Part shown: in pieces, positions 6,343 through 40,166 of the stretch
Position numbering within the stretch: position 1 is the stretch's first letter
Layout: every line of letters begins with the position of its first letter
Assembly: GCA_019084435.1 (NCBI GenBank)
Contig: JAHRFV010000100.1
Location: 1 to 43,713 of the forward strand
Source: Dethiosulfatibacter sp.
GTDB taxonomy: Bacteria; Bacillota_A; Clostridia; Tissierellales; Dethiosulfatibacteraceae
Reading direction: 5' to 3'
Length of the DNA stretch: 43,713 nt
Notes under the pieces: model-generated
Told to the model about the DNA's origin: nothing
Database searches by the model: none
Seen by the model: the letters and a program-made list of their open reading frames with translations, nothing else
Translations under genes and position numbers: made by a program

Positions 6343-6378
6343 AGACAGCAATTGACCCTGCTGGTATTATTATAATTA

Positions 6379-6512
6379 TAGCGCCCGAACTTAAATGGGG
6401 TCGTGTCATACATTTAAGTTGACGAGGATGGGGAGTATCGAGAGTTCGGCGGATGCCCCACGGTAAAGAGATATCGTAAGATGCCAATAAAATCGGGAAG
6501 TGATTTCCGACA
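6379..6512 (+). promoter_or_regulatory. glmS ribozyme-riboswitch
   Basis: The leader carries the glmS ribozyme core. The cleavage site is before G6381 in TATA-GCGCCC. ACTTAAATG (6389-6397) pairs with CATTTAAGT (6411-6419), followed by TGACGAGGATGGGG, GTTCGGCGGATGCCCCAC, and a final stem TCGGGAA/TTTCCGA (6493-6510) closed by a GTGA tetraloop. This RNA cuts itself when it binds glucosamine-6-phosphate, lowering glmS mRNA. A TATAAT-like box lies directly before the cut site, so the true start of transcription, or read-through from the EamA gene, is uncertain. Confidence 0.95.
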
Positions 6513-6596
6513 CAGAAAAAGCATCCTTCTCATAAAATCGCAATCAAGATTGTTTTAAAGACTATTTAGGTTGCTGAAATACAGGAGGACACGAAA

Positions 6597-8976: not shown

Positions 8977-9113
8977 AACTGTTACAATATCTTTTTAAAT
9001 CCTTTAGGTTTGTGGTCGTTATTAAGGTTTTTCAAAAACAACATTTACATGGAAGATAAACCGTGTTAAAATAAATTTAAATTAAACTAAAACTGAGAAG
9101 TCTCTCTCCTCTC

Positions 9114-9170
9114 GATAGAGACCATAACGCAAGTATAAACATTAGAAATGAAGGTATGCGTATGTTGTAA
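9114..9170 (+). pseudogene. tnpB: C-terminal remnant of TnpB
   Basis: The frame reads DRDHNASINIRNEGMRML and then TAA (9168-9170). DRDxNASxNI is the last RuvC motif of TnpB, with its catalytic Asp, and NEGMRML-stop is the usual end of the protein. Upstream in frame, recognisable TnpB sequence stops at about 9114 and a stop codon occurs at 9078. The nuclease is therefore gone. Confidence 0.85.
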
Positions 9171-9315
9171 GCATAAATTACGAAAGAACCGTGGGGCACA
9201 CGGGGATAGCTCGCTTATGTAGGTGGTTAACACAAGCATTAGTGCTTGTGTTACGACCAGTGCTGTAGCCGTTAGGCTACTCGAACGAGAAACCCCCACT
9301 TCTATAAGTGGTGGG
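9171..9315 (+). ncRNA. omegaRNA-like scaffold of the tnpB relic
   Basis: Downstream of the tnpB stop are GTGGGGCACACGGGGATAG, a perfect 10-base-pair hairpin AACACAAGCA-ttag-TGCTTGTGTT (9229-9252), the hairpin GTAGCC-gtta-GGCTAC, then CTCGAACGAGAA and the right-end hairpin. This order is typical of the 3' region of IS605-type tnpB genes that yields the guide RNA. The stems are intact although the nuclease gene is lost. Confidence 0.65.
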
Positions 9316-9433
9316 AGTATGTCACTAGATCTCCGAGCATTCTAACCTCTGTGGTTTCCACGTGGTTTCTGTGCCGATAGGGTTTGATTGGAAACGATCA
9401 GGCCTCCCGATGGAAAGGAGAATATTGCAATCA

Positions 9434-9467
9434 ACAGCATTCCATTGGACATGCTGTATATTTTTTT
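9434..9467 (+). terminator. Terminator between the IS relic and the structured repeat
   Basis: ACAGCAT (9434-9440) pairs with ATGCTGT (9451-9457), and TTTTTTT follows at 9461-9467. The 9323-9433 stretch holds small hairpins (GTGG-ttt-CCAC; GTTT-gattg-GAAAC) but no gene. It might end the relic RNA or be an attenuator in the leader of the SLH cluster. Confidence 0.7.
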
Positions 9468-9495
9468 GCAACTTCCCATGTGCTTGAAGATTTAT

Positions 9496-9626
9496 CCGAT
9501 GACTAACAGTGCTAAGACTCCCACTTCAATAAGTGGGAGATAAGCACTGTAGAGTCCCTGGATAACGGTTTCTAAGGTTCAGATGGCGTTTGAAACACCA
9601 CCTGAACCCAAGAACCCTGTTAATAA
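9496..9626 (+). repeat. Structured repeat, full-length copy, in the SLH gene leader
   Basis: Three stems are visible. ACAGTGCT (9506-9513) pairs with AGCACTGT (9543-9550), enclosing CTCCCACTT-caat-AAGTGGGAG (9518-9539). GGTTCAG (9576-9582) pairs with CTGAACC (9602-9608), with inner TGG/CCA and GTT/AAC. AACGGTTTCT (9564-9573) pairs imperfectly with AGAACCCTGTT (9611-9621). Both ends recur in reverse orientation at 35926-35984, where the middle is deleted. It is either a mobile structured element or a cis-acting RNA; the SLH gene starts 28 bases downstream. Confidence 0.65.
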
Positions 9627-9653: not shown

Positions 9654-10781
9654 ATGTTTACAAAAAGAACAAAAGGATTTGTGTTATTATTGGTATTGGT
9701 ATTAATCTTGTCTCAATTATCAGCATTTGCAACTGAACATGAAAACCATGCAGTCATGATTACAGGAGAGGGAGTTACTTCAGAATTACATCTTACCATA
9801 GAAGACATGAAGGCTATGCCTGCAGAGGCTCAGATTGACGAAGCCTATATTTACAACAGCAAAGCCGGCGAGAAATCAGTACACGTAAAAGGCGTAAGTC
9901 TTGCCTACGTATTGACTGAATTAGCTGGTGTAACTGCGGACAATGCTGAAGTTTCTTTCACAGCTTCTGATGCATATCCCATAGACCCTCAGATGCTTCA
10001 AGACGTTTTAAATCCTGAACTCAAGTATGTGTTGGCTTACGAAATCGATGGGGAAGCAGTAGATAATGATGATATTATGGACAATGAGGAAATAGTGGTC
10101 TATAGAAAATTAAAAGAAGCTGGCGAGTTCGGTACTGTCTTTAAAATGGTGGTGACAATATCAGTTGGGGAAGCGATTGAAGCACCGGTTGATCCTGAAC
10201 CTGAGGAAGAGGGAGAAGCCATTGAATTCACAGATATTACTGAAGAGTTTTCATATGCTGAAATGGCTATTCAGGAACTGGCTAAAAAAGGCATCATCAA
10301 CGGCATAGGAAATGGACTGTATGCTCCGGCTGGGAGCCTTACCAGAGCTCAAATCTCCAAAATCATGGTTGAGTCTTTAGGATATGAGCAAGCTGAATAC
10401 AAAGGCGGTTTCAGTGATGTGGACGCATCAGATTGGTTTGCAGGCTATGTGCAAGCTGCTGTTGACGCAGGCATATTTGTCGGATATCCTGATGGCACTT
10501 TCAAACCGGATCAAGTCATCAGCAGACAGGAAATGGCAGTTGTAGCTGTCAGAGGCGCGATTGACATGGAACTGGTCACGCCTGAAAGAGTAGCCAAGTT
10601 TGTCATGGAGAAATCCGCATATCTAGACAAGGATGCAGTACCTGAATGGGCGGCCAATGAGGTGGCATGGCTGGAAGCAGAAGGTGTTTTTGTCGAGATA
10701 GCAGTTGAGAACTTTGAACCGGTTAAAGTTGTTAATCGAGCAGAAGCGGCTGTGACCGTTTATAATACACTATTCAAGTAA
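9654..10781 (+). CDS. SLH surface protein with a Moco-fold-like domain
   Basis: A 375-residue exported protein. The signal peptide (basic start, hydrophobic core, cleavage near AFA) ends at about residue 27. Residues about 35-175 resemble the sulfite-oxidase molybdopterin-binding fold (VHVKGVSLAYVL, then VSFTASDAYPID, YVLAYEIDG), but the mature protein has no cysteine at all, so the Moco ligand is missing. After an acidic linker (EPEEEGEA) come three SLH repeats (about 195-375), which would anchor it to cell-wall polymer. It opens the five-gene surface cluster; a hairpin before the next gene may reduce read-through. Confidence 0.8.
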   Translation: MFTKRTKGFVLLLVLVLILSQLSAFATEHENHAVMITGEGVTSELHLTIEDMKAMPAEAQIDEAYIYNSKAGEKSVHVKGVSLAYVLTELAGVTADNAEVSFTASDAYPIDPQMLQDVLNPELKYVLAYEIDGEAVDNDDIMDNEEIVVYRKLKEAGEFGTVFKMVVTISVGEAIEAPVDPEPEEEGEAIEFTDITEEFSYAEMAIQELAKKGIINGIGNGLYAPAGSLTRAQISKIMVESLGYEQAEYKGGFSDVDASDWFAGYVQAAVDAGIFVGYPDGTFKPDQVISRQEMAVVAVRGAIDMELVTPERVAKFVMEKSAYLDKDAVPEWAANEVAWLEAEGVFVEIAVENFEPVKVVNRAEAAVTVYNTLFK

Positions 10782-10813
10782 CATTTGATTTCATGAATAT
10801 GTAGCATTTATAT

Positions 10814-10850
10814 AAATGAGTGACGGCACTAGCTTTCACTCATTTTATCA
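10814..10850 (+). terminator. Hairpin between the two SLH genes
   Basis: AAATGAGTG (10814-10822) pairs with CACTCATTT (10837-10845), and the T run is short. It is probably a partial terminator that lets the first SLH gene be expressed above the rest. Confidence 0.55.
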
Positions 10851-10865
10851 ATCGGGGAGGGTAGT

Positions 10866-13800
10866 ATGAATATCAGTAGACAAAGAGTGGTTATTTTTAT
10901 AATAATTGCAATGATGTTTTTTTCAAACGGATTTCATTTCGCTGTTGATGCAGATGCGACAACGGTAGAATTGCTTATAACAGGGACAGGTGTAAATCAG
11001 GAAGTCAGTATTTCAACCTCGGACTGGGCCCATTACACCTTAAGAGAAAGGACTTATTCAACAAACAACAGTTTAAATTTCCACAAGATTATCAAAGCTA
11101 AAGGATATGACCTATTTGAACTGATTGGCATAAACAATCTGAAAACAGATATTGATTATGTGGTCAAATTCACTTGCGCTGATGGCTTTGAGTTTACCAA
11201 AACCATCAGTGAGTTAAAAAACACTTATTATTACAGTGATTTTTCAGAATCCAGCAAGGTTCAAGTCAACCCTATGATAGCAAAATACTCAGCGGTATTG
11301 GCTGATTTTCCGCCAAACAGTTTTTCACCTCCAGTACAGTGGACTGACAGGAACCTGACTGAGAGTGACCTAGATAAAGATTTTCCAAAGCTTGTATTTG
11401 GACAGACAGGTATAGATGACATGAATATGTCAAAATGGGGAAAAGAGGTTATCAGAATAACAATAGGTGATAGTCTGCCTGTCGATTCAGATGGATTGGA
11501 TTCGCCGTTCAAACATATCAGCTATGAAGGCGCTCCGTACAATGTTGACGCGATAACCAGCGCTACACTGACAATAGAGGGTCCTGCAGTTGAGGGTTAC
11601 AGGGCAATTTCCCTAAGACAGATCGAAGAAGATTTGACTGGACAGGAACAGGTTTCCGTCTATGAAAATCTCAATGGGGAAATATTACTGAACACCTTTG
11701 AGGGAATAAATGTCGAGTACCTAATTGACAATTATGTCAAAGTAAAAGAGAACGCAGGTAATATGGTCTTTAAGAATAATTCCCGTCAGACCATATTGTC
11801 AGTGCCTGTGGAAGATGCTTCAAAGTATACCATTGCTTATGGCATCAATGATGTTCCTCTGGTTTATTTAGATTCTGATGTAGGTTACAATCCTTCAAAA
11901 AACAACGACGGCGGTTGCTTTAAGCTGGTTTATGAGCAAAGCCGATCAACAGCGAAAGCATTTTCAAATGTTGCCTATATCTACATAGAAGAAAAAGATG
12001 CCAAAAATATTTTTGAGCATACCTATGCGCCCTACAATGATCCCAAATATGTGGATTATGAAATCATCATTCATGGGAATAAGATGACTGAGGAAGTCAG
12101 ATACAAGGTATCTGACATTGAGTCGATGACCAATATCCATTATGAGAATGAATATAGCTTGTCAAATAGTGAGTATTTCTGGTATTACAATCGATACAAA
12201 GGTGTGAAATTATGGGATTTGCTTCTTCGAGCAGGCTTGGATCCAGAGATTGATGAGTCGACAAGTATCCAGTTTATTGCAGCAGACAACTACAATTTCG
12301 CTCCTATGACCATCAAGGAAATAAAGGATAACAGTCTGTACGGCTATTATGAAAAGGATGCAACAGATTTGGGTGATGGCAATTTCGATGGAAATGGTGT
12401 CAAGCCACTTCATACCGGCATGCCAATCCTTGTTACATATGGTTTCAATGGATATCCCTATGTCATCAGGCCAACAGATGCGGGATTCAATCCTGGATTG
12501 GGCAATGATGGTGGTCCCCTTAGAGTCATTTTTGGCAAAACAAACTACAACGATACCAACGGATCCAATCAAGTGCAGTTTTTGAAAGAAATTATTATTG
12601 GTGGCGGCGACCCTGTATCAACAGGCTCAAGTGGAACAGGCGAGGGAGAAACCACACATCAGGATATAGACAAGAGCACATCATGGAACCATAATCGCGG
12701 TGTTTACAAAGACTACCTGGATACGCCAGTGCTTAGAGTTACAGGGTCTCAGGTTAAGGAACCGATGACTTTTACCCTTCGACAGGTAGAATCCATGATA
12801 GAATTTGGTGTCAGAGACATCTATACGGGGGACGGTGTTCATGAGTTTGAGGGCATTGTTTTATGGGATCTGATTTCCGAGTTTGTCGGACTTGAGGAAG
12901 GCGTTGAAACCCCTAATATTCGTGTTTTTGCCGGACAAAATTACAATCAGATATTAAGAAGTCCTGATCAGGTCATTAATGGGGTCTTGAATTCCCAAGG
13001 GAATCTGAAAAAGATAATCTTAGCATATGCCATTAATGGACACCCGCTTGTTCCAAACGAAGGCAGCGTTGGATATACCAACAACAATGCCTATGGACCT
13101 CTAAGACTAATCATGGAGGAGAGCAAGTCCATGTGGGTCAAATGGGTGGATTGCATAGTAGTGGGAACAGGTGATTATGAAGCGCCTGAGATGAAAGATG
13201 TGAAAGAACTGGATCTGCCTGACCTTGAAGATCTTGAAACATCAACAGAATCAGGTACAGGAAAAATCTGGCTAACCTATCAGAACAGTACCGGAAAGGA
13301 AATGACGGAAGCCAGTGTCAGAAGTATGGCATTCGATCAGGAAGGCAATCTTTGGATTGGCACCAATAATGGTGGGTTATCAGTTAGGACAGTCGATGGG
13401 AAATGGTCTAATATCAAAGAGATTGAAACTGACAATGCAGGATTCGTCAAATTGGACACGACCTACGCCATTGTTCAGAGAGAAAACGGTGAGCTTTGGA
13501 TGACTCTTGGAAGCCCTGTAAATCCACAGGGAATACTTGTCAGAACCAATAGCATTTGGAAACTACTGAATACTGAAAACTCGCTGCTGCCTGGCTTATT
13601 TGCTCAGGAGTTGGCGTTAGATGGCAATGGAGGTCTATGGATTGGGACACAAAGCGGAGCAGTCCATGTTGATAAGGACGACAACTGGAGTGTTTATACA
13701 TCCAACCAAGGTCTGCTGCCCTATTCAGTCGATGCCATAGAACCGGATGGTCAAGGTGGCGCATGGATCGGTTACTATCCTGCGACAGTTGGTAGCGATG

Positions 13801-14813
13801 CTAATCCAATATATAAAGGAGGCTACCAGCATCTGGCTGCCGATGGGAAAATAACAACTTATGAAGGATTCAACGATTCCAACTTCAATCTCAATTGGGT
13901 TAGAAGCATATCCATGGATTCAAAAGGTGGTGTCTGGGTTGTCAGGTCTGGAAATGCGCCAGGTTTAGGACAAGGTGAGATGGATTATATCATCGATGGA
14001 GAAAGAACGGTCTATCAGGCAAAGGATTTATATCCGTCTATTTCTGATGGAGATGATATACGGCTTGTCATGATTGACAGAGAAGATGAAGATGCGATGT
14101 ATATCGCCACATTGGCTAGCGGATTGCTGAAGGCTGATGGAATTGGAAATGTTACTGATAGTTTCGATGCAACATCTCCATTCCCAACCAGACAGTGGAA
14201 CAATGTTTTCTTTATGGATATTGCTGAAGAAGGACTTTTGATAGGAACTAACGGCGGTGCAGCCGTATATGCGCATGCAAGGACATTTAAAGATATTTCG
14301 TCCCATTGGGCGAAAAATGATATTGAAATGATGGCGACTATGGGTTACATTAAGGGAAGTGATGGACAATATCATCCGGACAATAGCATTACCCGTGCCG
14401 AGTTCGTGGCTATGATGGTCCGAATTCTTGGACTGTCATCGAGTGACATCAGCAACCTTCCATTCACAGATGTAAAGCAGACGGATTGGTTTGCAGGAGA
14501 GTTGGCTGCAGCAGCTGGAAATGGATTGATTAAAGGCTACTCAGACAATACCTTTAAACCCAATGCATATATCAACAGAAATGAAATAGGGAGCATTATT
14601 GGAAATCTGCTGGACAGCAATCTGACCTCTTTACAAATCACTGAAGCTTTGGACGGATTCACAGATGACATTCCTCAGTGGGCAAGAGATGCGGTGGCAG
14701 CAACTGTCAACGCAGGAATCATCAAAGGATTTCCGGACAGGTCATTTGGTGGGACCCACAATGCAACAAGAGGTCAAGCAGCGACCATTTTACTGAGATT
14801 CTTAAAATACTGA
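10866..14813 (+). CDS. Large SLH protein: four Moco-fold-like repeats and a propeller
   Basis: A 1315-residue exported protein with a signal peptide at about 1-30. Four Moco-fold-like repeats lie at about 35-215, 240-385, 395-580 and 620-770; clear pieces are YKGVKLWDLLLRAG, FIAADNYNFAPM, GPLRLIMEES and WVKWVDCIVVG. Around residue 230 DAITSATLT resembles an FMN-attachment motif with Ser in place of Gly. Residues about 795-1130 hold LWIGT-type beta-propeller repeats, and about 1140-1315 hold three SLH repeats. GGGGAGGG precedes ATG. I infer a wall-bound scaffold, possibly for electron transfer or sensing; the function is unknown. Confidence 0.78.
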   Translation: MNISRQRVVIFIIIAMMFFSNGFHFAVDADATTVELLITGTGVNQEVSISTSDWAHYTLRERTYSTNNSLNFHKIIKAKGYDLFELIGINNLKTDIDYVVKFTCADGFEFTKTISELKNTYYYSDFSESSKVQVNPMIAKYSAVLADFPPNSFSPPVQWTDRNLTESDLDKDFPKLVFGQTGIDDMNMSKWGKEVIRITIGDSLPVDSDGLDSPFKHISYEGAPYNVDAITSATLTIEGPAVEGYRAISLRQIEEDLTGQEQVSVYENLNGEILLNTFEGINVEYLIDNYVKVKENAGNMVFKNNSRQTILSVPVEDASKYTIAYGINDVPLVYLDSDVGYNPSKNNDGGCFKLVYEQSRSTAKAFSNVAYIYIEEKDAKNIFEHTYAPYNDPKYVDYEIIIHGNKMTEEVRYKVSDIESMTNIHYENEYSLSNSEYFWYYNRYKGVKLWDLLLRAGLDPEIDESTSIQFIAADNYNFAPMTIKEIKDNSLYGYYEKDATDLGDGNFDGNGVKPLHTGMPILVTYGFNGYPYVIRPTDAGFNPGLGNDGGPLRVIFGKTNYNDTNGSNQVQFLKEIIIGGGDPVSTGSSGTGEGETTHQDIDKSTSWNHNRGVYKDYLDTPVLRVTGSQVKEPMTFTLRQVESMIEFGVRDIYTGDGVHEFEGIVLWDLISEFVGLEEGVETPNIRVFAGQNYNQILRSPDQVINGVLNSQGNLKKIILAYAINGHPLVPNEGSVGYTNNNAYGPLRLIMEESKSMWVKWVDCIVVGTGDYEAPEMKDVKELDLPDLEDLETSTESGTGKIWLTYQNSTGKEMTEASVRSMAFDQEGNLWIGTNNGGLSVRTVDGKWSNIKEIETDNAGFVKLDTTYAIVQRENGELWMTLGSPVNPQGILVRTNSIWKLLNTENSLLPGLFAQELALDGNGGLWIGTQSGAVHVDKDDNWSVYTSNQGLLPYSVDAIEPDGQGGAWIGYYPATVGSDANPIYKGGYQHLAADGKITTYEGFNDSNFNLNWVRSISMDSKGGVWVVRSGNAPGLGQGEMDYIIDGERTVYQAKDLYPSISDGDDIRLVMIDREDEDAMYIATLASGLLKADGIGNVTDSFDATSPFPTRQWNNVFFMDIAEEGLLIGTNGGAAVYAHARTFKDISSHWAKNDIEMMATMGYIKGSDGQYHPDNSITRAEFVAMMVRILGLSSSDISNLPFTDVKQTDWFAGELAAAAGNGLIKGYSDNTFKPNAYINRNEIGSIIGNLLDSNLTSLQITEALDGFTDDIPQWARDAVAATVNAGIIKGFPDRSFGGTHNATRGQAATILLRFLKY

Positions 14814-14864
14814 CAAGACACCTAAAGGAACACCAACATAATCTTGATGGAGGAAACGACAAAA

Positions 14865-15638
14865 ATGATGAAAAAATATAGCAACGTAATGATTTTACTG
14901 TTAGTGTTGATCTTTATGCTATCAGCATGTGGCACAAAAGCAACAGATATCCAGACAACGACACAAGCAAACCAAGAGATTGCGAGCAGCTCTGATGAGA
15001 CATCAGCTAGCAACACAACCCAGGAGGTCTCTACCGAAGAGACCTCTGGTGTAACTGATCCAACTATGACAGAAACCACAGAACCAACTCAAACCGAGTC
15101 AATCGGGACAACCACAATAGCGACACAGACATTAGCTTCACAAGCCACAGCCACAGAGACAACAATTCCGGAGACAGAAGCATCAGCTTTGAATGCTTTG
15201 AAAATAACGGGAAAGGTCACATATGAAATGACCATAACTCTTGATGAGCTTAAGTCATTGGACGACATTATTGTCGAGGAAGACTACTATTCTGTAAATA
15301 CCTTCGGAACAAAAGGACACACTCGGTTTAAAGGTGCGAACCTGTGGTATTTGTTGGATCAATATGCCGGGATTGAAGAGGATGCCAGCAGCATTACAGT
15401 CTTGGCTACAGACGGATATAAGGTCAAGTTCACCATAGAACAGATCATGAAACAGGATTATATTGATGAGACAGACCCAAACAAGAAATTGCCTGTGATC
15501 ATAGCATGGGAAGAGAATGGCGTCGCGTATGATCCTGAAGATGGCGCGCCGTATAAACTAGCAATCGGTCAGACTGCACCTGGCGATTTGAACAAACCCC
15601 AATGGGTATCAATGATTGACAGTATAATAATCGAATAA
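14865..15638 (+). CDS. Lipoprotein with one Moco-fold-like domain
   Basis: About 257 residues. The lipoprotein signal ends in LSAC, with Cys22 the lipid-anchored residue and the only cysteine. Residues about 25-110 are a Thr/Ser/Glu-rich linker suited to spanning the wall. Residues about 115-257 are a single Moco-fold-like domain (FKGANLWYLLDQYAG, VLATDGYKVKFT, VIIAWEENG). ATG 14865 is chosen because GGAGG lies upstream and the signal peptide then starts cleanly. DNA for the linker carries the inverted repeat AGGTCTCT/AGAGACCT (15025-15045). It sits between the large SLH gene and the FMN-binding gene. Confidence 0.78.
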   Translation: MMKKYSNVMILLLVLIFMLSACGTKATDIQTTTQANQEIASSSDETSASNTTQEVSTEETSGVTDPTMTETTEPTQTESIGTTTIATQTLASQATATETTIPETEASALNALKITGKVTYEMTITLDELKSLDDIIVEEDYYSVNTFGTKGHTRFKGANLWYLLDQYAGIEEDASSITVLATDGYKVKFTIEQIMKQDYIDETDPNKKLPVIIAWEENGVAYDPEDGAPYKLAIGQTAPGDLNKPQWVSMIDSIIIE

Positions 15639-15651
15639 GGTAAGTGATGAG

Positions 15652-17232
15652 ATGAAGAAAAGAAGAATTTACTTATTGATGATGGCATTGATCATCATTG
15701 TGGTTTTAGTTGCCTTTATGCTAAACAACACGGCATCAGATGAAGAAAAGAAGGTTAGAGCTTTTTATCCTGAGGCAAACAAAATAACCTTGGTCAAGGA
15801 TATCGTTGATGATTCGTTTATCACCATCAATATGCCTGCCGTCAGAAGGGCCTACGAGGTCGATGGCGTAGTCAAGGCTTATGTGGTCAGTTGTATGGGC
15901 TATATAGGTCCTGTTGAGTTGCTTGCGGCTATAGATGACAGCAATGGTGAACTGATTGGCATAGAAATACTGGAACACACAGAAACACCCAGCTATGCGG
16001 ACCACATTGAAGATGAATGGTTTCTGGAGAGGTTCAAGAATATCCTGATTGACAAGTATCTGAATCTGGTTGTCCTGGACAAGGAAAATCCTGAGGATAT
16101 CATTCAAGTCACAGGCGCTACAATCAGTTCACAGGCGGTTGTCAATGCGGTCAATGCAGCAATCGGTGCTTATCAGTATCAACAAAATGGCCTTAAAATG
16201 AGCCGAGTCTCAGACGTGGTTCCAAGAGAGATGTGGCAGCAGGATGTCAACAGCTTTGCCATAAATTGGGAAGAGAGCAGTTTCAGAGTCAACACGGACT
16301 CAATCAAGGAGTATGAACAGCTAGAAGCAGATGTCACACTGATAAACACGACTGGAACAGAAAACTCCATGAGAGTCAAAGGCCCAACCTTACGACATGT
16401 TCTTGAAAAAGAGGGTTTGGATCTAGCGGAGTATGAAGGAATTGGCATAACGGGCCGAGATGGCTACTATACATTGGTTGACAGAGAGAAGCTTATAAAC
16501 AATGATGTTATATTGGTCTGGGAAGTCAACGGTAAACCGATTAGAGACGAAGATAAGCCTATGAGAATCGCCATGCCAAATGAGTTGGGTCCTTATTGGG
16601 TGAAAATGGTTTCCAATATTGACCTCTACAAGACCATATCACCAAAAAACATTGATAAGGTTCATATGTTTGACGCTTTGACACGCGATATCGAACCCTA
16701 CTACTACGAGTATTACGGCAGCAAAGATAAGTCAGTTGAAATCGGGAAAATACTGATGAAGTTCGATGAGATAGATGATAAAGGTTTCTTTACAATGGGT
16801 GCAACAGATGGATTGGTCAAAAATGAGACAATCTCCATGGTAAGACAAAGGTATTTTATCAAGATTGAGGGTGAAAATGCCCCTATGAATATAGCACCTA
16901 CCTTTAAGCTTGGCATGAATGTCAAGTTCATGACTTATTTCTCAACTACCAAAGATGCTGTTATTTTTCCGGAACAAATTCAGAAGGTTGTCAGAACACA
17001 AGAGATTGCCGGAAAGACAGGTATGTTTGTAGAGGATGTACTTCTCGATGTCGGCATGAGCTGGAATGACGATACTGTTTTCAATGTAGTAGGGATTGAT
17101 CATATTCAGCAATACGAGATAAGTTCCAAGGACCTGATGATGTATCATTTAATTTATGAAAATGGCAATGTGGACCTTTACCGTAATCAAAGCATTGTAT
17201 TGTATGACGTCTTAAGGATTGAGAAGCCATGA
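15652..17232 (+). CDS. Membrane-anchored FMN-binding protein with Moco-fold-like domains
   Basis: A 526-residue protein anchored by one N-terminal helix (about residues 6-24). Residues about 35-180 form an RnfG/NqrC-like FMN_bind domain (GYIGPVELLAAID, ILEHTETPSYAD), with the flavin-attachment motif VTGATISS; Thr157 would carry FMN through a phosphoester bond made by an ApbE flavin transferase, which is not in the window. Residues about 205-320 are one Moco-fold-like domain (MRVKGPTLRHVLEKEG, ILVWEVNG), and 330-526 may be another diverged one. The stop overlaps the next start (ATGA), so both are translated together. Confidence 0.8.
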   Translation: MKKRRIYLLMMALIIIVVLVAFMLNNTASDEEKKVRAFYPEANKITLVKDIVDDSFITINMPAVRRAYEVDGVVKAYVVSCMGYIGPVELLAAIDDSNGELIGIEILEHTETPSYADHIEDEWFLERFKNILIDKYLNLVVLDKENPEDIIQVTGATISSQAVVNAVNAAIGAYQYQQNGLKMSRVSDVVPREMWQQDVNSFAINWEESSFRVNTDSIKEYEQLEADVTLINTTGTENSMRVKGPTLRHVLEKEGLDLAEYEGIGITGRDGYYTLVDREKLINNDVILVWEVNGKPIRDEDKPMRIAMPNELGPYWVKMVSNIDLYKTISPKNIDKVHMFDALTRDIEPYYYEYYGSKDKSVEIGKILMKFDEIDDKGFFTMGATDGLVKNETISMVRQRYFIKIEGENAPMNIAPTFKLGMNVKFMTYFSTTKDAVIFPEQIQKVVRTQEIAGKTGMFVEDVLLDVGMSWNDDTVFNVVGIDHIQQYEISSKDLMMYHLIYENGNVDLYRNQSIVLYDVLRIEKP

Positions 17233-18413
17233 GGTCAGGAACCAGAAGCCGCATCCAATTCACTGCGACTGTTCTAGTCATATTGAGTACAATTATATAT
17301 TTCCTTTACATCAATGACATACTGGATTTCAAAATTCTTTCAATAGGAGATCTCAACCCTTACGGAGGATGGAGCGCACTTAAGTCTACTTTTACTGATG
17401 TATCCTACCGGTGGGGTGGGATAACACGTTCCATAGCACTGACTATTTCTATCACACTGACAGCTTTGTTGCTAGGCAGGTTTTTTTGCGGGTTTTTATG
17501 TCCAGTTGGTTCATTGCAGGATGGCATTAGATTTTTGGCTGGAAAGCTTGGCGTAAAAAAGAAAAAGCTTCCTTCGATTCGAATAGTAAAGCCGGAGTCG
17601 ATCAAGTATGTTGTTCTGATTGCACTAATCATATTAAGCACAATCGGCCTAGGCAGCAGAGCCTCAGCTGTTTCTCCCTGGTTGGCGTACTTGAACGTTT
17701 TTGCCGGATTTCGGATTCATACCGGCCTAATTATTTTGGTTTTGATTGTCTTGTTTTCCGTATTTTTCAATCGAGTGTTTTGTCGATGCTTTTGTCCACT
17801 GGGAGCGTTCCAAGCGCTTCTCAACGCTATAAGTCCGCTAAAAATAAGCAAGGGTAAAAGCTGTAATGGTTGTCAGTTGTGTCTCAAGGATTGTCCGGTT
17901 GATATAATAGCGGATAATGAAGAAACAATTTCTCCGGAATGTGTTAATTGCTTGAAATGTACAGAGGCATCCTGCATCAAAGGCTCACCCGGTTATCAAG
18001 TGGTTTTTGCAGGAAAAGCAATTAGAAATAAGACCTATTTAATAGCCAGCCTGCTTCTGTTTTTAGTACTGTTTATTATGCTACCGCTATCTGGAAACTA
18101 CAAATCAGCTCAAGGAGCAATGGATCTGGGTCAATTGAAGGATGGTATCTATCAAGGGATTGGAGTTGGGTTTGGTGGTAGTATAACCATCAGCACAACA
18201 GTTATAGATAACAGAATCAGTAATATTGAAATCACAAGTCATAGAGAAACACAGGGGTACTACGAGGAAGTATTTAAAACCATGACAAAAGAAATCATTG
18301 AAACACAAAATCTGAACATTGACGCCATAAGTGGTGCGACTGTTACAAGCAGAGGATATTTAGGTGGGGTCAAGAGCGGGGTTGGCATGGCTATGGAAGA
18401 TGATGACAACTAA
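17229..18413 (+). CDS. NosR/NapH-like polyferredoxin with C-terminal FMN_bind domain
   Basis: A 394-residue membrane protein. It has several helices, two CxxxCP motifs of the NosR/NapH/CcoG type (CGFLCPVG and CRCFCPLG), a pair of [4Fe-4S] motifs (CNGCQLCLKDCP and CVNCLKCTEASC), another helix, then an extracytoplasmic FMN_bind domain (about 300-390) with the consensus motif DAISGATVTS, Thr371 being the likely flavin site. Such proteins pass electrons from the cytosolic side to exported redox partners. Known NosR has its flavin domain at the N-terminus, so the order here differs. It is the last gene of the cluster, before a terminator. Confidence 0.87.
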   Translation: MRSGTRSRIQFTATVLVILSTIIYFLYINDILDFKILSIGDLNPYGGWSALKSTFTDVSYRWGGITRSIALTISITLTALLLGRFFCGFLCPVGSLQDGIRFLAGKLGVKKKKLPSIRIVKPESIKYVVLIALIILSTIGLGSRASAVSPWLAYLNVFAGFRIHTGLIILVLIVLFSVFFNRVFCRCFCPLGAFQALLNAISPLKISKGKSCNGCQLCLKDCPVDIIADNEETISPECVNCLKCTEASCIKGSPGYQVVFAGKAIRNKTYLIASLLLFLVLFIMLPLSGNYKSAQGAMDLGQLKDGIYQGIGVGFGGSITISTTVIDNRISNIEITSHRETQGYYEEVFKTMTKEIIETQNLNIDAISGATVTSRGYLGGVKSGVGMAMEDDDN

Positions 18414-18435
18414 ATAAAAAATTGATTAACAAAAG

Positions 18436-18467
18436 ATCCACTCTTCAATTAAGGGTGGATTTTTTTG
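18436..18467 (+). terminator. Terminator of the SLH-FMN cluster
   Basis: ATCCACTCTT (18436-18445) pairs with AAGGGTGGAT (18451-18460), one G-U pair included, and seven T follow. Confidence 0.9.
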
Positions 18468-39967: not shown

Positions 39968-39983
39968 TATTTTGAACTGAAAA

Positions 39984-40140
39984 TCTTTGTTAGGTGAGGC
40001 TACTATATAGAAATATGCTTCTGCCCGGAAACATCGAGAGATGCCAATGGGTCAACAGGCTTTATCGGATTAAGGTATAGCTTAACGGAGCTGTTTTTAA
40101 AACTTACGCTATATAGAGCTAAAACTCAACGAGTGAAAGA
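39984..40140 (+). promoter_or_regulatory. M-box (ykoK) magnesium riboswitch
   Basis: The conserved core is visible in order: GTTAGGTGAGGCTACTATAT, CTTCTGCCCGGAAACATCGA, GAGATGCCAATGGGTCAACA, GGCTTTATCGG, TTAAGG, GCTTAACGGAGC, then CTAAAACTCAACGAG. Start and end can pair (CTTTGTT with AACGAG/AAAG). Folding with Mg2+ favours the downstream terminator, so mgtE is made when magnesium is low. Confidence 0.95.
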
Positions 40141-40166
40141 TATTATGGCTATTTTTGTGTACTTGT

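What the first reader, a model, noticed from the sequence alone, without database searches (positions are those of the whole stretch)
9654..18413. Candidate envelope electron-transfer system: polyferredoxin, flavin domains and SLH-anchored Moco-fold proteins
Seen: five same-strand genes end at one terminator; two encode SLH proteins, one a lipoprotein, one a membrane-anchored FMN_bind protein (VTGATISS), one a NosR/NapH-like polyferredoxin with FMN_bind (DAISGATVTS). Known: S/TGAT motifs are flavinylated by ApbE, and NosR/Rnf/Nqr and the Listeria EET system move electrons out through such domains. Inferred: electrons pass from cytosolic donors through the membrane protein and flavins to S-layer-held Moco-fold domains, perhaps for an extracellular acceptor. 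I know no described system with this gene set.
Basis: partly seen in the sequence, partly recalled or inferred. Interest (0 to 1): 0.8.

Follow-up and report, generated by a model that had tools for sequence, protein, structure and literature searches.

The report
Candidate tungsten-cofactor scavenging surface system
Five neighbouring bacterial genes under a cofactor-sensing RNA switch look like part of a cell-surface machine that captures, reduces and helps take up the pterin cofactor of tungsten and molybdenum enzymes, which would be a kind of uptake system not yet described in bacteria.

Summary
Five co-directional genes (9654-18413) encode two SLH proteins, a lipoprotein, an FMN_bind protein and a NapH/NosR-like FMN_bind polyferredoxin. 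It precedes gene 1 in 17 of 17 relatives that hold gene 1 with its upstream sequence. Its wiring (predicted OFF with ligand, 18 of 18) resembles that of tungstate-uptake/cofactor-synthesis operons and differs from aldehyde:ferredoxin oxidoreductase operons (predicted ON in 11 of 19). The 'Moco-fold' domains lack the Mo-ligating Cys; their closest solved relatives include PruR, a Cys-less periplasmic pterin-binding protein. In 18 of 25 relatives the genes run on into an ECF transporter S component, usually with a nucleotide-pyrophosphatase lipoprotein, EcfA/A'/T and MobB; in G008, a close relative, that half sits at a second riboswitch locus. Best reading: envelope capture, flavin-driven reduction and ECF import of tungsto-/molybdopterin. 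Gene set, regulation and fold rest on computation; substrate and direction are inferred. Plain extracellular electron transfer is a weaker rival.

The parts
9319..9436 (+). Moco/tungsten-cofactor riboswitch aptamer (RF01055), without the P3 stem
   Evidence: cmscan 65.1 bits, E 1.9e-15 on the stretch; P3 positions deleted in the printed alignment
9434..9457 (+). Predicted riboswitch terminator hairpin, followed by a U-rich run; its 5' arm UUCCAU (9440-9445) is complementary to aptamer AUGGAA (9410-9415), giving a predicted antiterminator
9494..9625 (.). 132-bp insertion between terminator and RBS of gene 1, absent from relative L002; holds long palindromes
   Evidence: palindromes read by eye
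9654..10781 (+). g1: secreted SUOX-like (PruR-like) domain + 3 SLH; no cysteine
10866..14813 (+). g2: about four SUOX-like repeats (cut by eye; Pfam reports one stretch), Reg_prop propeller, 3 SLH; flavinylation-like motif TSATLT at 11556-11573
14844..15638 (+). g3: lipoprotein (lipobox Cys29) with one SUOX-like domain
15652..17232 (+). g4: N-terminal TM anchor, RnfG-like FMN_bind (TGATIS 16111-16128), SUOX-like domain about aa 196-330, conserved C-terminal region
17229..18413 (+). g5: NapH/NosR-like membrane polyferredoxin with C-terminal FMN_bind (SGATVT 18330-18347)
18435..18466 (+). Terminator-like hairpin with U-run at the end of the operon

Best explanation
The operon is the envelope half of a tungsten/molybdenum-pterin cofactor acquisition system. 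When tungsten cofactor is scarce the riboswitch lets transcription through. Cys-less SUOX-fold domains held on the S-layer (g1, g2), as a lipoprotein (g3) and on the membrane (g4) bind extracellular metallopterin or its pterin part reversibly, as PruR binds pterins. Gene 5 passes electrons from a cytosolic or quinol donor across the membrane to its own FMN, then to the FMN of g4 (and perhaps a flavin on g2), to keep or make the bound pterin reduced. A nucleotide-pyrophosphatase lipoprotein would trim dinucleotide forms such as MGD, an ECF transporter with a PF09819 S component would import the product, and MobB would feed guanylylation; in most relatives these genes follow the five, in the close relative G008 they lie at a second riboswitch locus. 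Shown by computation: gene set and conservation, riboswitch, wiring prediction, fold, Cys loss, linkage to ECF/NPP/MobB, co-occurrence with AOR. Inferred: ligand identity, binding, flavin loading, direction of transport, order of electron transfer, that the window's organism has the second locus.
For: Riboswitch before gene 1 in 17 of 17 relatives holding gene 1 with its upstream sequence, and in the window. Wiring (hairpin rule with P1 placed by Rfam coordinates): terminator separate from P1 in 18 of 18 five-gene RNAs with a complementary 5' arm (mean match 6.4 nt against 3.7 in stem-shuffled controls, 0 of 1000 as high) and in 10 of 11 tup/moe RNAs (5.4 against 3.8, 0 of 1000); P1 inside the terminator in 11 of 19 AOR RNAs. 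Cys replaced. PruR among the best fold and PDB-sequence matches; PruR binds pterins without the Cys (PMC13259868, section 7). ECF_S adjacent in 18 of 25 close and 8 of 18 distant loci; 16 of 18 ECF_S regions from a class sample are strong matches and all 16 have EcfT and a SUOX-like gene, 14 MobB, 14 NPP. Of 291 class genomes, 17 of 19 with ECF_S have AOR against 26 of 272 without, and 18 of 19 have RF01055 against 24 of 272 (not corrected for kinship). G189 and G252 keep AOR and the complete importer operon without MoaA, MoaC or MoeA hits. G127 has Moco RNA - PF09819-like gene - ORF - MobA-like gene, divergent from genes that include an MGD-type enzyme, and none of the three.
Against: No ECF, NPP or MobB gene was recognised in the window, and no genome is held for it. 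Most genomes with the system also have MoaA/MoaC/MoeA (24-25 of 32); completeness of those lacking them is unknown and the missing genes often form one operon. PruR's site is described as too small for Moco, with Trp in place of Cys, whereas here it is N/S/T. The AOR contrast was 5 of 5 in the first sample but 6 of 14 in RNAs tested later (5 separate, 3 unassigned). For ECF-locus RNAs 9 of 11 are separate but their complementarity is not beyond controls (110 and 75 of 1000). An earlier, looser caller put P1 inside the hairpin for 12 of 18 five-gene RNAs. Two RF01055 RNAs head what look, by eye, like ordinary aldehyde dehydrogenases (L003, L084), so a target need not serve acquisition. ECF transporters can also export (PMC9973259). 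PDB-sequence matches to PruR are weak (E 0.02-0.68). L010 has the ECF genes but no MobB hit in the 3.4 kb that follow; L005 has 7.6 kb after g6 without an ECF_S hit.
Confidence: 0.48

Rival explanations
1. Extracellular electron transfer as a tungsten-scarcity alternative. When tungsten cofactor is low and AOR cannot work, the cell switches on a flavin and bound-pterin wire through the S-layer to dispose of electrons on an extracellular acceptor; the ECF transporter would export pterin to load the wire.
For: Two canonical flavinylation motifs plus a third in the SLH protein in 17 of 24 g2-like relatives; gene set resembles NapH-like flavinylated systems, and SLH proteins occur in some flavinylation clusters (PMC8238504 passages); one host is named Geosporobacter ferrireducens; a FAD_binding_2+FMN_bind reductase-like gene ends the locus in several relatives; Moco RNAs also head aldehyde dehydrogenases by eye, possible isozyme swaps.
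Against: Does not explain MobB, the nucleotide pyrophosphatase, or loci with ECF/NPP/MobB/SUOX-like genes and no flavin-gene hit in the stretch held (L085, L090, L134, L135); no cytochrome domain among the Pfam hits of the five proteins.
Confidence: 0.2
2. Cofactor export for extracellular tungsten or molybdenum enzymes: the ECF transporter sends out cofactor and the SUOX-fold proteins are loaded after Sec export, bypassing Tat; flavins supply or remove electrons for catalysis.
For: TatC found in 4 of 14 genomes; export by an ECF complex is known for FAD (PMC9973259 passages).
Against: Mo-ligating Cys lost in the aligned domains; predicted OFF wiring, unlike the AOR enzyme operons; the S component is PF09819, not the FAD exporter EetB family PF07456.
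Confidence: 0.1
3. Tungstate capture or mobilisation: the surface proteins bind or reduce tungsten oxyanions or their thio forms to make the metal available under scarcity.
For: Predicted co-regulation with the tungstate transporter tupABC.
Against: A dedicated tungstate transporter is already present in many of these genomes; MobB, NPP and the pterin-binding-like fold are not explained.
Confidence: 0.08
4. Pterin signalling only: the surface domains sense extracellular pterins as PruR does, without transport.
For: Fold and weak sequence relation to PruR.
Against: No GGDEF/EAL or sensor-kinase partner was noticed in the operon or its extension (not searched for as such), and an ECF transporter is linked.
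Confidence: 0.05

Closest known systems
NapH-like flavinylated electron-transfer systems (Meheust et al. 2021, PMC8238504; passages seen)
   Same: Fer4_5 membrane polyferredoxin with FMN_bind and a second FMN_bind protein; extracytosolic
   Different: Here FMN_bind is C-terminal, partners are Cys-less SUOX-fold SLH proteins under a Moco/tungsten-cofactor riboswitch; 'molybd', 'sulfite oxidase' and 'PF00174' have no occurrence in the main text of that paper
PruR pterin-binding protein of Agrobacterium and others (PMC13259868; section 7 and passages seen; PDB 7kos, 7kom, 7kp2, 7rkb)
   Same: Extracytosolic SUOX fold without the Mo-ligating Cys; PruR NDY aligned by HMMER to our DGY
   Different: Single-domain regulator with DcpA/DTB partner; Trp replaces Cys; in the passages seen not linked to a transporter or riboswitch
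Moco/Tuco riboswitch regulon (Regulski et al. 2008, PMC2408646; sections 5, 6 and 11 read)
   Same: P3-less RNA; operons for uptake, synthesis and W enzymes; [quoted passage not shown]
   Different: Cys loss, flavin system, ECF transporter and MobB linkage are not described in those sections
Listeria EET locus and EetB-FmnA ECF exporter (PMC9973259; passages seen)
   Same: ECF transporter linked to flavinylated extracytosolic proteins
   Different: Different S-component family (PF09819 here, PF07456 there); no MobB, NPP or SUOX-fold proteins mentioned in the passages seen
Rnf complex subunit RnfG
   Same: FMN_bind half of g4 is RnfG-like (below NCBIfam cut-offs; PDB 7zc6_G)
   Different: No other Rnf subunit among the five; fused to a SUOX-like domain

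Membership tests
RF01055 Moco/tungsten-cofactor riboswitch | Covariance-model score above the curated threshold | tested here: met
   65.1 bits against 36
RF01055 Moco/tungsten-cofactor riboswitch | P3-less form proposed for tungsten cofactor | tested here: met
   P3 positions deleted in the alignment; correlation from PMC2408646 section 11
RF01055 Moco/tungsten-cofactor riboswitch | Ligand-dependent gene control | not testable with these tools
   Only sequence logic of terminator and antiterminator
NapH-like flavinylated system | Fer4_5 (PF12801) gene in a cluster with FMN_bind | tested here: met
   g5 and g4
NapH-like flavinylated system | ApbE in the genome | tested here: met
   14 of 14 relative genomes; the window's own genome is not held
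NapH-like flavinylated system | Covalent FMN on the motif Thr | not testable with these tools
   Motif in 24 of 25 g4 and 24 of 24 g5 relatives scoring above 300 bits
Sulfite-oxidase family Mo enzyme | SUOX fold | tested here: met
   g4 and g3 models
Sulfite-oxidase family Mo enzyme | Mo-ligating Cys | tested here: not met
   N, S or T in that column against Cys in a true relative from G014; repeat g2d has a gap there; g1 has no Cys
Sulfite-oxidase family Mo enzyme | Tat export | tested here: not met
   No twin-arginine pattern in five N-termini; TatC in 4 of 14 relative genomes
PruR-type pterin-binding protein | Extracytosolic SUOX fold without Mo-Cys | tested here: met
PruR-type pterin-binding protein | Trp in place of the Cys | tested here: not met
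   N/S/T here; Trp stated in PMC13259868
PruR-type pterin-binding protein | Pterin-contacting Tyr and Trp | tested here: inconclusive
   PruR NDY aligns with our DGY; the Trp was not mapped residue by residue
PruR-type pterin-binding protein | Pterin binding | not testable with these tools
   needs protein
ECF transporter | S, A, A' and T subunits in one operon | tested here: met
   In relatives, not in the window
EetB-type FAD exporter | S component of PF07456 | tested here: not met
   PF09819 is the only Pfam hit of the S components scanned from L004, L085 and L136; PF07456 from the paper

The most novel reading that the evidence does not exclude
A bacterial salvage pathway for the tungsten/molybdenum pterin cofactor: S-layer-held, PruR-like proteins catch cofactor released by other cells, covalent flavins keep it reduced, an outside nucleotide pyrophosphatase trims it, a dedicated ECF transporter imports it and MobB/MobA re-charge it, all switched on by a riboswitch when the cofactor runs low, so that some AOR-bearing species may live without making molybdopterin.
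Probability: 0.4. Interest if true: 0.92.

Novelty: categorically new. Interest (0 to 1): 0.8.

Why it matters
I found no described bacterial importer for molybdopterin or its metal forms in the open-access library searched (listings); [quoted passage not shown] If true, cofactor exchange would be a hidden layer of anaerobic communities, use of AOR and formate dehydrogenase could be decoupled from making the cofactor, many genes now annotated as molybdopterin-dependent oxidoreductases would be pterin carriers, and ON and OFF tungsten-cofactor riboswitches in one genome become testable.

Tried and rejected
Own genome: not held, so relatives were used throughout. Viral contigs: no relative.

Wiring test, all versions. 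The first caller allowed long imperfect hairpins and placed P1 inside the hairpin (3 nt or more) for 12 of 18 five-gene RNAs. On checking I saw that four AOR RNAs already fetched had been left out, so I fetched ten more and ran the same hairpin limits with P1 placed by Rfam coordinates instead of the motif. Overlap/separate/unassigned: five-gene 0/18/0; tup/moe 1/10/0; AOR, first five 5/0/0, left-out four 2/1/1, new ten 4/4/2; ECF-locus 1/9/1 of 11; SLH-gene-headed 1/3/0; ALDH 0/2/0; others (L077 twice, L089) 0/3/0. Complementarity exceeds controls for five-gene, tup/moe, SLH-headed and others (0, 0, 4 and 6 of 1000), not for ECF-locus (110 and 75 of 1000), AOR separate ones (776 and 352) or ALDH (979). 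So the OFF call for the five genes stands; the ON call for AOR is a tendency, and that for ECF loci is weak.

The idea of true Mo/W enzymes was rejected on the missing Cys. The FAD-exporter reading of the ECF was set aside on family and on loci without flavin-gene hits beside it. Molybdopterin auxotrophy as proof was not accepted: MoaC is missing in 7 of 32 genomes and in 12 of 31 in a second set, two of them shared, but completeness is unknown and the four complete or near single-contig genomes recognised (G001, G004, G193, G198) have MoaA, MoaC and MoeA. ECF_S against PDB sequences: no match. The g3 profile against PDB gave mostly low-complexity hits. L015 breaks the pattern (no gene 1, no RNA). 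L025 has g4 in two ORFs and L006 has Ns in g1. ECF_S was not searched for elsewhere in G013 (L005). The small ORF of L136 is called SUOX-like by eye only; Pfam does not call it. The g4 model is of middling confidence (mean pLDDT 62.7) and residues 328-434 are unreliable, so no fold is claimed there.

Not followed: the FAD_binding_2+FMN_bind genes and the APH/Bud32-like genes at the end of the loci.

Full report
1. Observation. The five ORFs are present as described. g1 (375 aa): secreted, SLH x3, PF00174 just under the cut-off. g2 (1315 aa): SLH x3, two-component-regulator propeller, PF00174. g3 (264 aa): lipoprotein, PF00174. g4 (526 aa): membrane anchor, FMN_bind of RnfG type, PF00174. g5 (394 aa): Fer4_5, NapH/NosR-like (below NCBIfam cut-offs), with C-terminal FMN_bind. 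A hairpin with a U-run ends the unit at 18466; a PadR-type regulator gene follows.

2. A Moco/tungsten-cofactor riboswitch (RF01055) lies at 9319-9436, before g1. It lacks stem P3. Regulski et al. (PMC2408646, sections 5, 6 and 11 read; [quoted passage not shown]

3. Conservation. A homology search with g4 gave 224 proteins among the 7996 candidates scored; a scan of one genome per species for 84,980 species gave 43 loci. Of 25 loci with a close g4 (L001-L025), 17 hold all five genes in order, 7 are cut by contig ends, and L015 lacks g1 and has a shortened g2. All 25 were scanned with Rfam: the 17 that hold g1 with its upstream sequence have RF01055 just before it; L015 has none. Of the 18 more distant loci (L026-L043), 17 were scanned (L034 left out for length) and 9 have RF01055. 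ApbE was found in 14 of 14 genomes searched; TatC in 4 of 14.

4. The rest of the system. In 18 of 25 close loci the five genes are followed by a small SUOX-like protein and an ECF S component; then come, as far as contigs allow, a PF01663 (type I phosphodiesterase/nucleotide pyrophosphatase) lipoprotein (17 of 18), a second small SUOX-like protein, EcfA, EcfA', EcfT and MobB (14 of 18; L007, L012 and L013 end too soon, L010 does not). Of the other seven, L001 and L020 end at once, L008 and L014 end within 1.6 kb of the small SUOX-like gene, L005 runs 7.6 kb on without an S-component hit, and L002 and L019 lack the extension. In the genomes of the last two, G008 (g4 85% identical to the window's) and G010, it lies at a separate locus headed by its own Moco RNA (L090, L085). 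The S component is PF09819, the family that holds YkoE (link recalled; a YkoE crystal-structure paper is in the listing). To test the link without the five genes, I searched 291 genomes of the class of G002 for the S component alone: 19 have it, G002 included. Of 18 fetched regions, 16 hold strong matches (147 bits or more); all 16 have EcfT and a SUOX-like gene, 14 have MobB and 14 the pyrophosphatase. In the same 291 genomes AOR is in 43 and RF01055 in 42; among the 19 with the S component the numbers are 17 and 18 (Fisher p about 4e-14 and 3e-16, kinship not corrected). 15 of 19 S-component genes have a same-strand Moco RNA within 15 kb, 12 of them upstream.

5. Wiring. Other Moco RNAs in the same genomes head, among others, tungstate transporter (TupA family) plus moe/moa operons and aldehyde:ferredoxin oxidoreductase operons. 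With the final rule the terminator of the five-gene RNAs is a separate hairpin after P1 in 18 of 18, and its 5' arm matches the 3' side of the aptamer over 5-8 nt; the mean match is 6.4 nt against 3.7 in controls that shuffle the stem (0 of 1000 as high; the 18 are related sequences). The tup/moe RNAs behave alike (10 of 11 separate; 5.4 against 3.8, 0 of 1000). In AOR RNAs the 3' strand of P1 is the 5' arm of the terminator in 11 of 19 (5 of 5 in the sample from which the rule was made, 6 of 14 tested later; 5 are separate, 3 unassigned), and the separate ones show no such match beyond controls. ECF-locus RNAs are separate in 9 of 11, with complementarity not beyond controls. The simplest reading is OFF with ligand for the five genes and for tup/moe, and ON with ligand for a good part of AOR. 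Looser callers gave another picture, as told under Tried and rejected. So the operon is wired like acquisition, not like use of the cofactor.

7. Electrons. The flavinylation motif is in 24 of 25 g4 and 24 of 24 g5 relatives above 300 bits; g2 has a DAITGATFT-like motif, canonical in 17 of 24 g2-like proteins listed, with Ser for Gly in four (L002, L003, L023, L035) and in the window, and not found in three (L001, L015, L020).

8. Salvage clues. Of 32 genomes, MoaA and MoaC are both missing in 7 (G008, G010, G014, G070, G127, G189, G252) and MoeA too in 6 of these, all but G010. Five of those six have AOR, G008 with 11 hits, some partial. G189 and G252, 86% identical over about 2.2 kb, are two related genomes with the whole importer operon, one RF01055 match each in the filtered search, and one AOR hit each. 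G127 has a Moco RNA, with a P3 stem by eye, at the ribosome-binding site of a PF09819-like gene (24.6 bits, just under the cut-off) followed by an unassigned ORF and a MobA-like gene, divergent from genes that include a molybdopterin-dinucleotide enzyme. These are what salvage predicts, but genome completeness is unknown.

9. Verdict. What is firm: a conserved, riboswitch-headed envelope system that joins flavin electron transfer with PruR-like, Cys-less SUOX domains and, in relatives, a dedicated ECF transporter, a pyrophosphatase and MobB. What is inferred: that it imports tungsto-/molybdopterin. I put 0.48 on that mechanism. Novelty rests on the searches named under Why it matters, in an open-access library only.

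Noticed in passing
window 9494-9625 and about 9100-9320: A 132-bp insertion with palindromes separates the terminator from the RBS of g1, and the stretch before the aptamer differs from relative L002; both resemble IS200/IS605-type ends (recalled, not tested), so expression in this strain may be altered.
   Followed up: partly
window 6369-6535 and 39979-40145: glmS ribozyme before a glmS-like gene (by eye) and M-box riboswitch before an MgtE-family gene: ordinary.
   Followed up: no
L003:18842-18962; L084: RF01055 RNAs before genes that look by eye like ordinary aldehyde dehydrogenases, perhaps metal-free substitutes for AOR; their expression platforms fit neither pattern.
   Followed up: partly
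L136 (G127): Minimal cassette Moco RNA - PF09819-like gene - unassigned ORF - MobA-like gene, divergent from genes that include a molybdopterin-dinucleotide enzyme.
   Followed up: partly
L089 (G011): RF01055 before an SLH/Big_5 protein and a FecCD/BtuF-like ABC transporter (by eye), a possible further tungsten or cofactor transporter.
   Followed up: no
L140 (G301): RF01055 before a FecCD-like ABC transporter and a MobA-like gene (by eye).
   Followed up: no
L018, L006, L011, L017, L024: A FAD_binding_2 + FMN_bind reductase-like gene closes the extended locus (Pfam for L018; phmmer for the others).
   Followed up: no
L035:1-6963; L041:13378-19191; L131:11080-18237: Very large proteins (2320, 1937 and 2385 aa) with g2-like stretches in distant relatives.
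   Followed up: no
L138 (G014:C38): A lipoprotein of PF00174 that keeps the Mo-type Cys, in a genome without a TatC hit.
   Followed up: no
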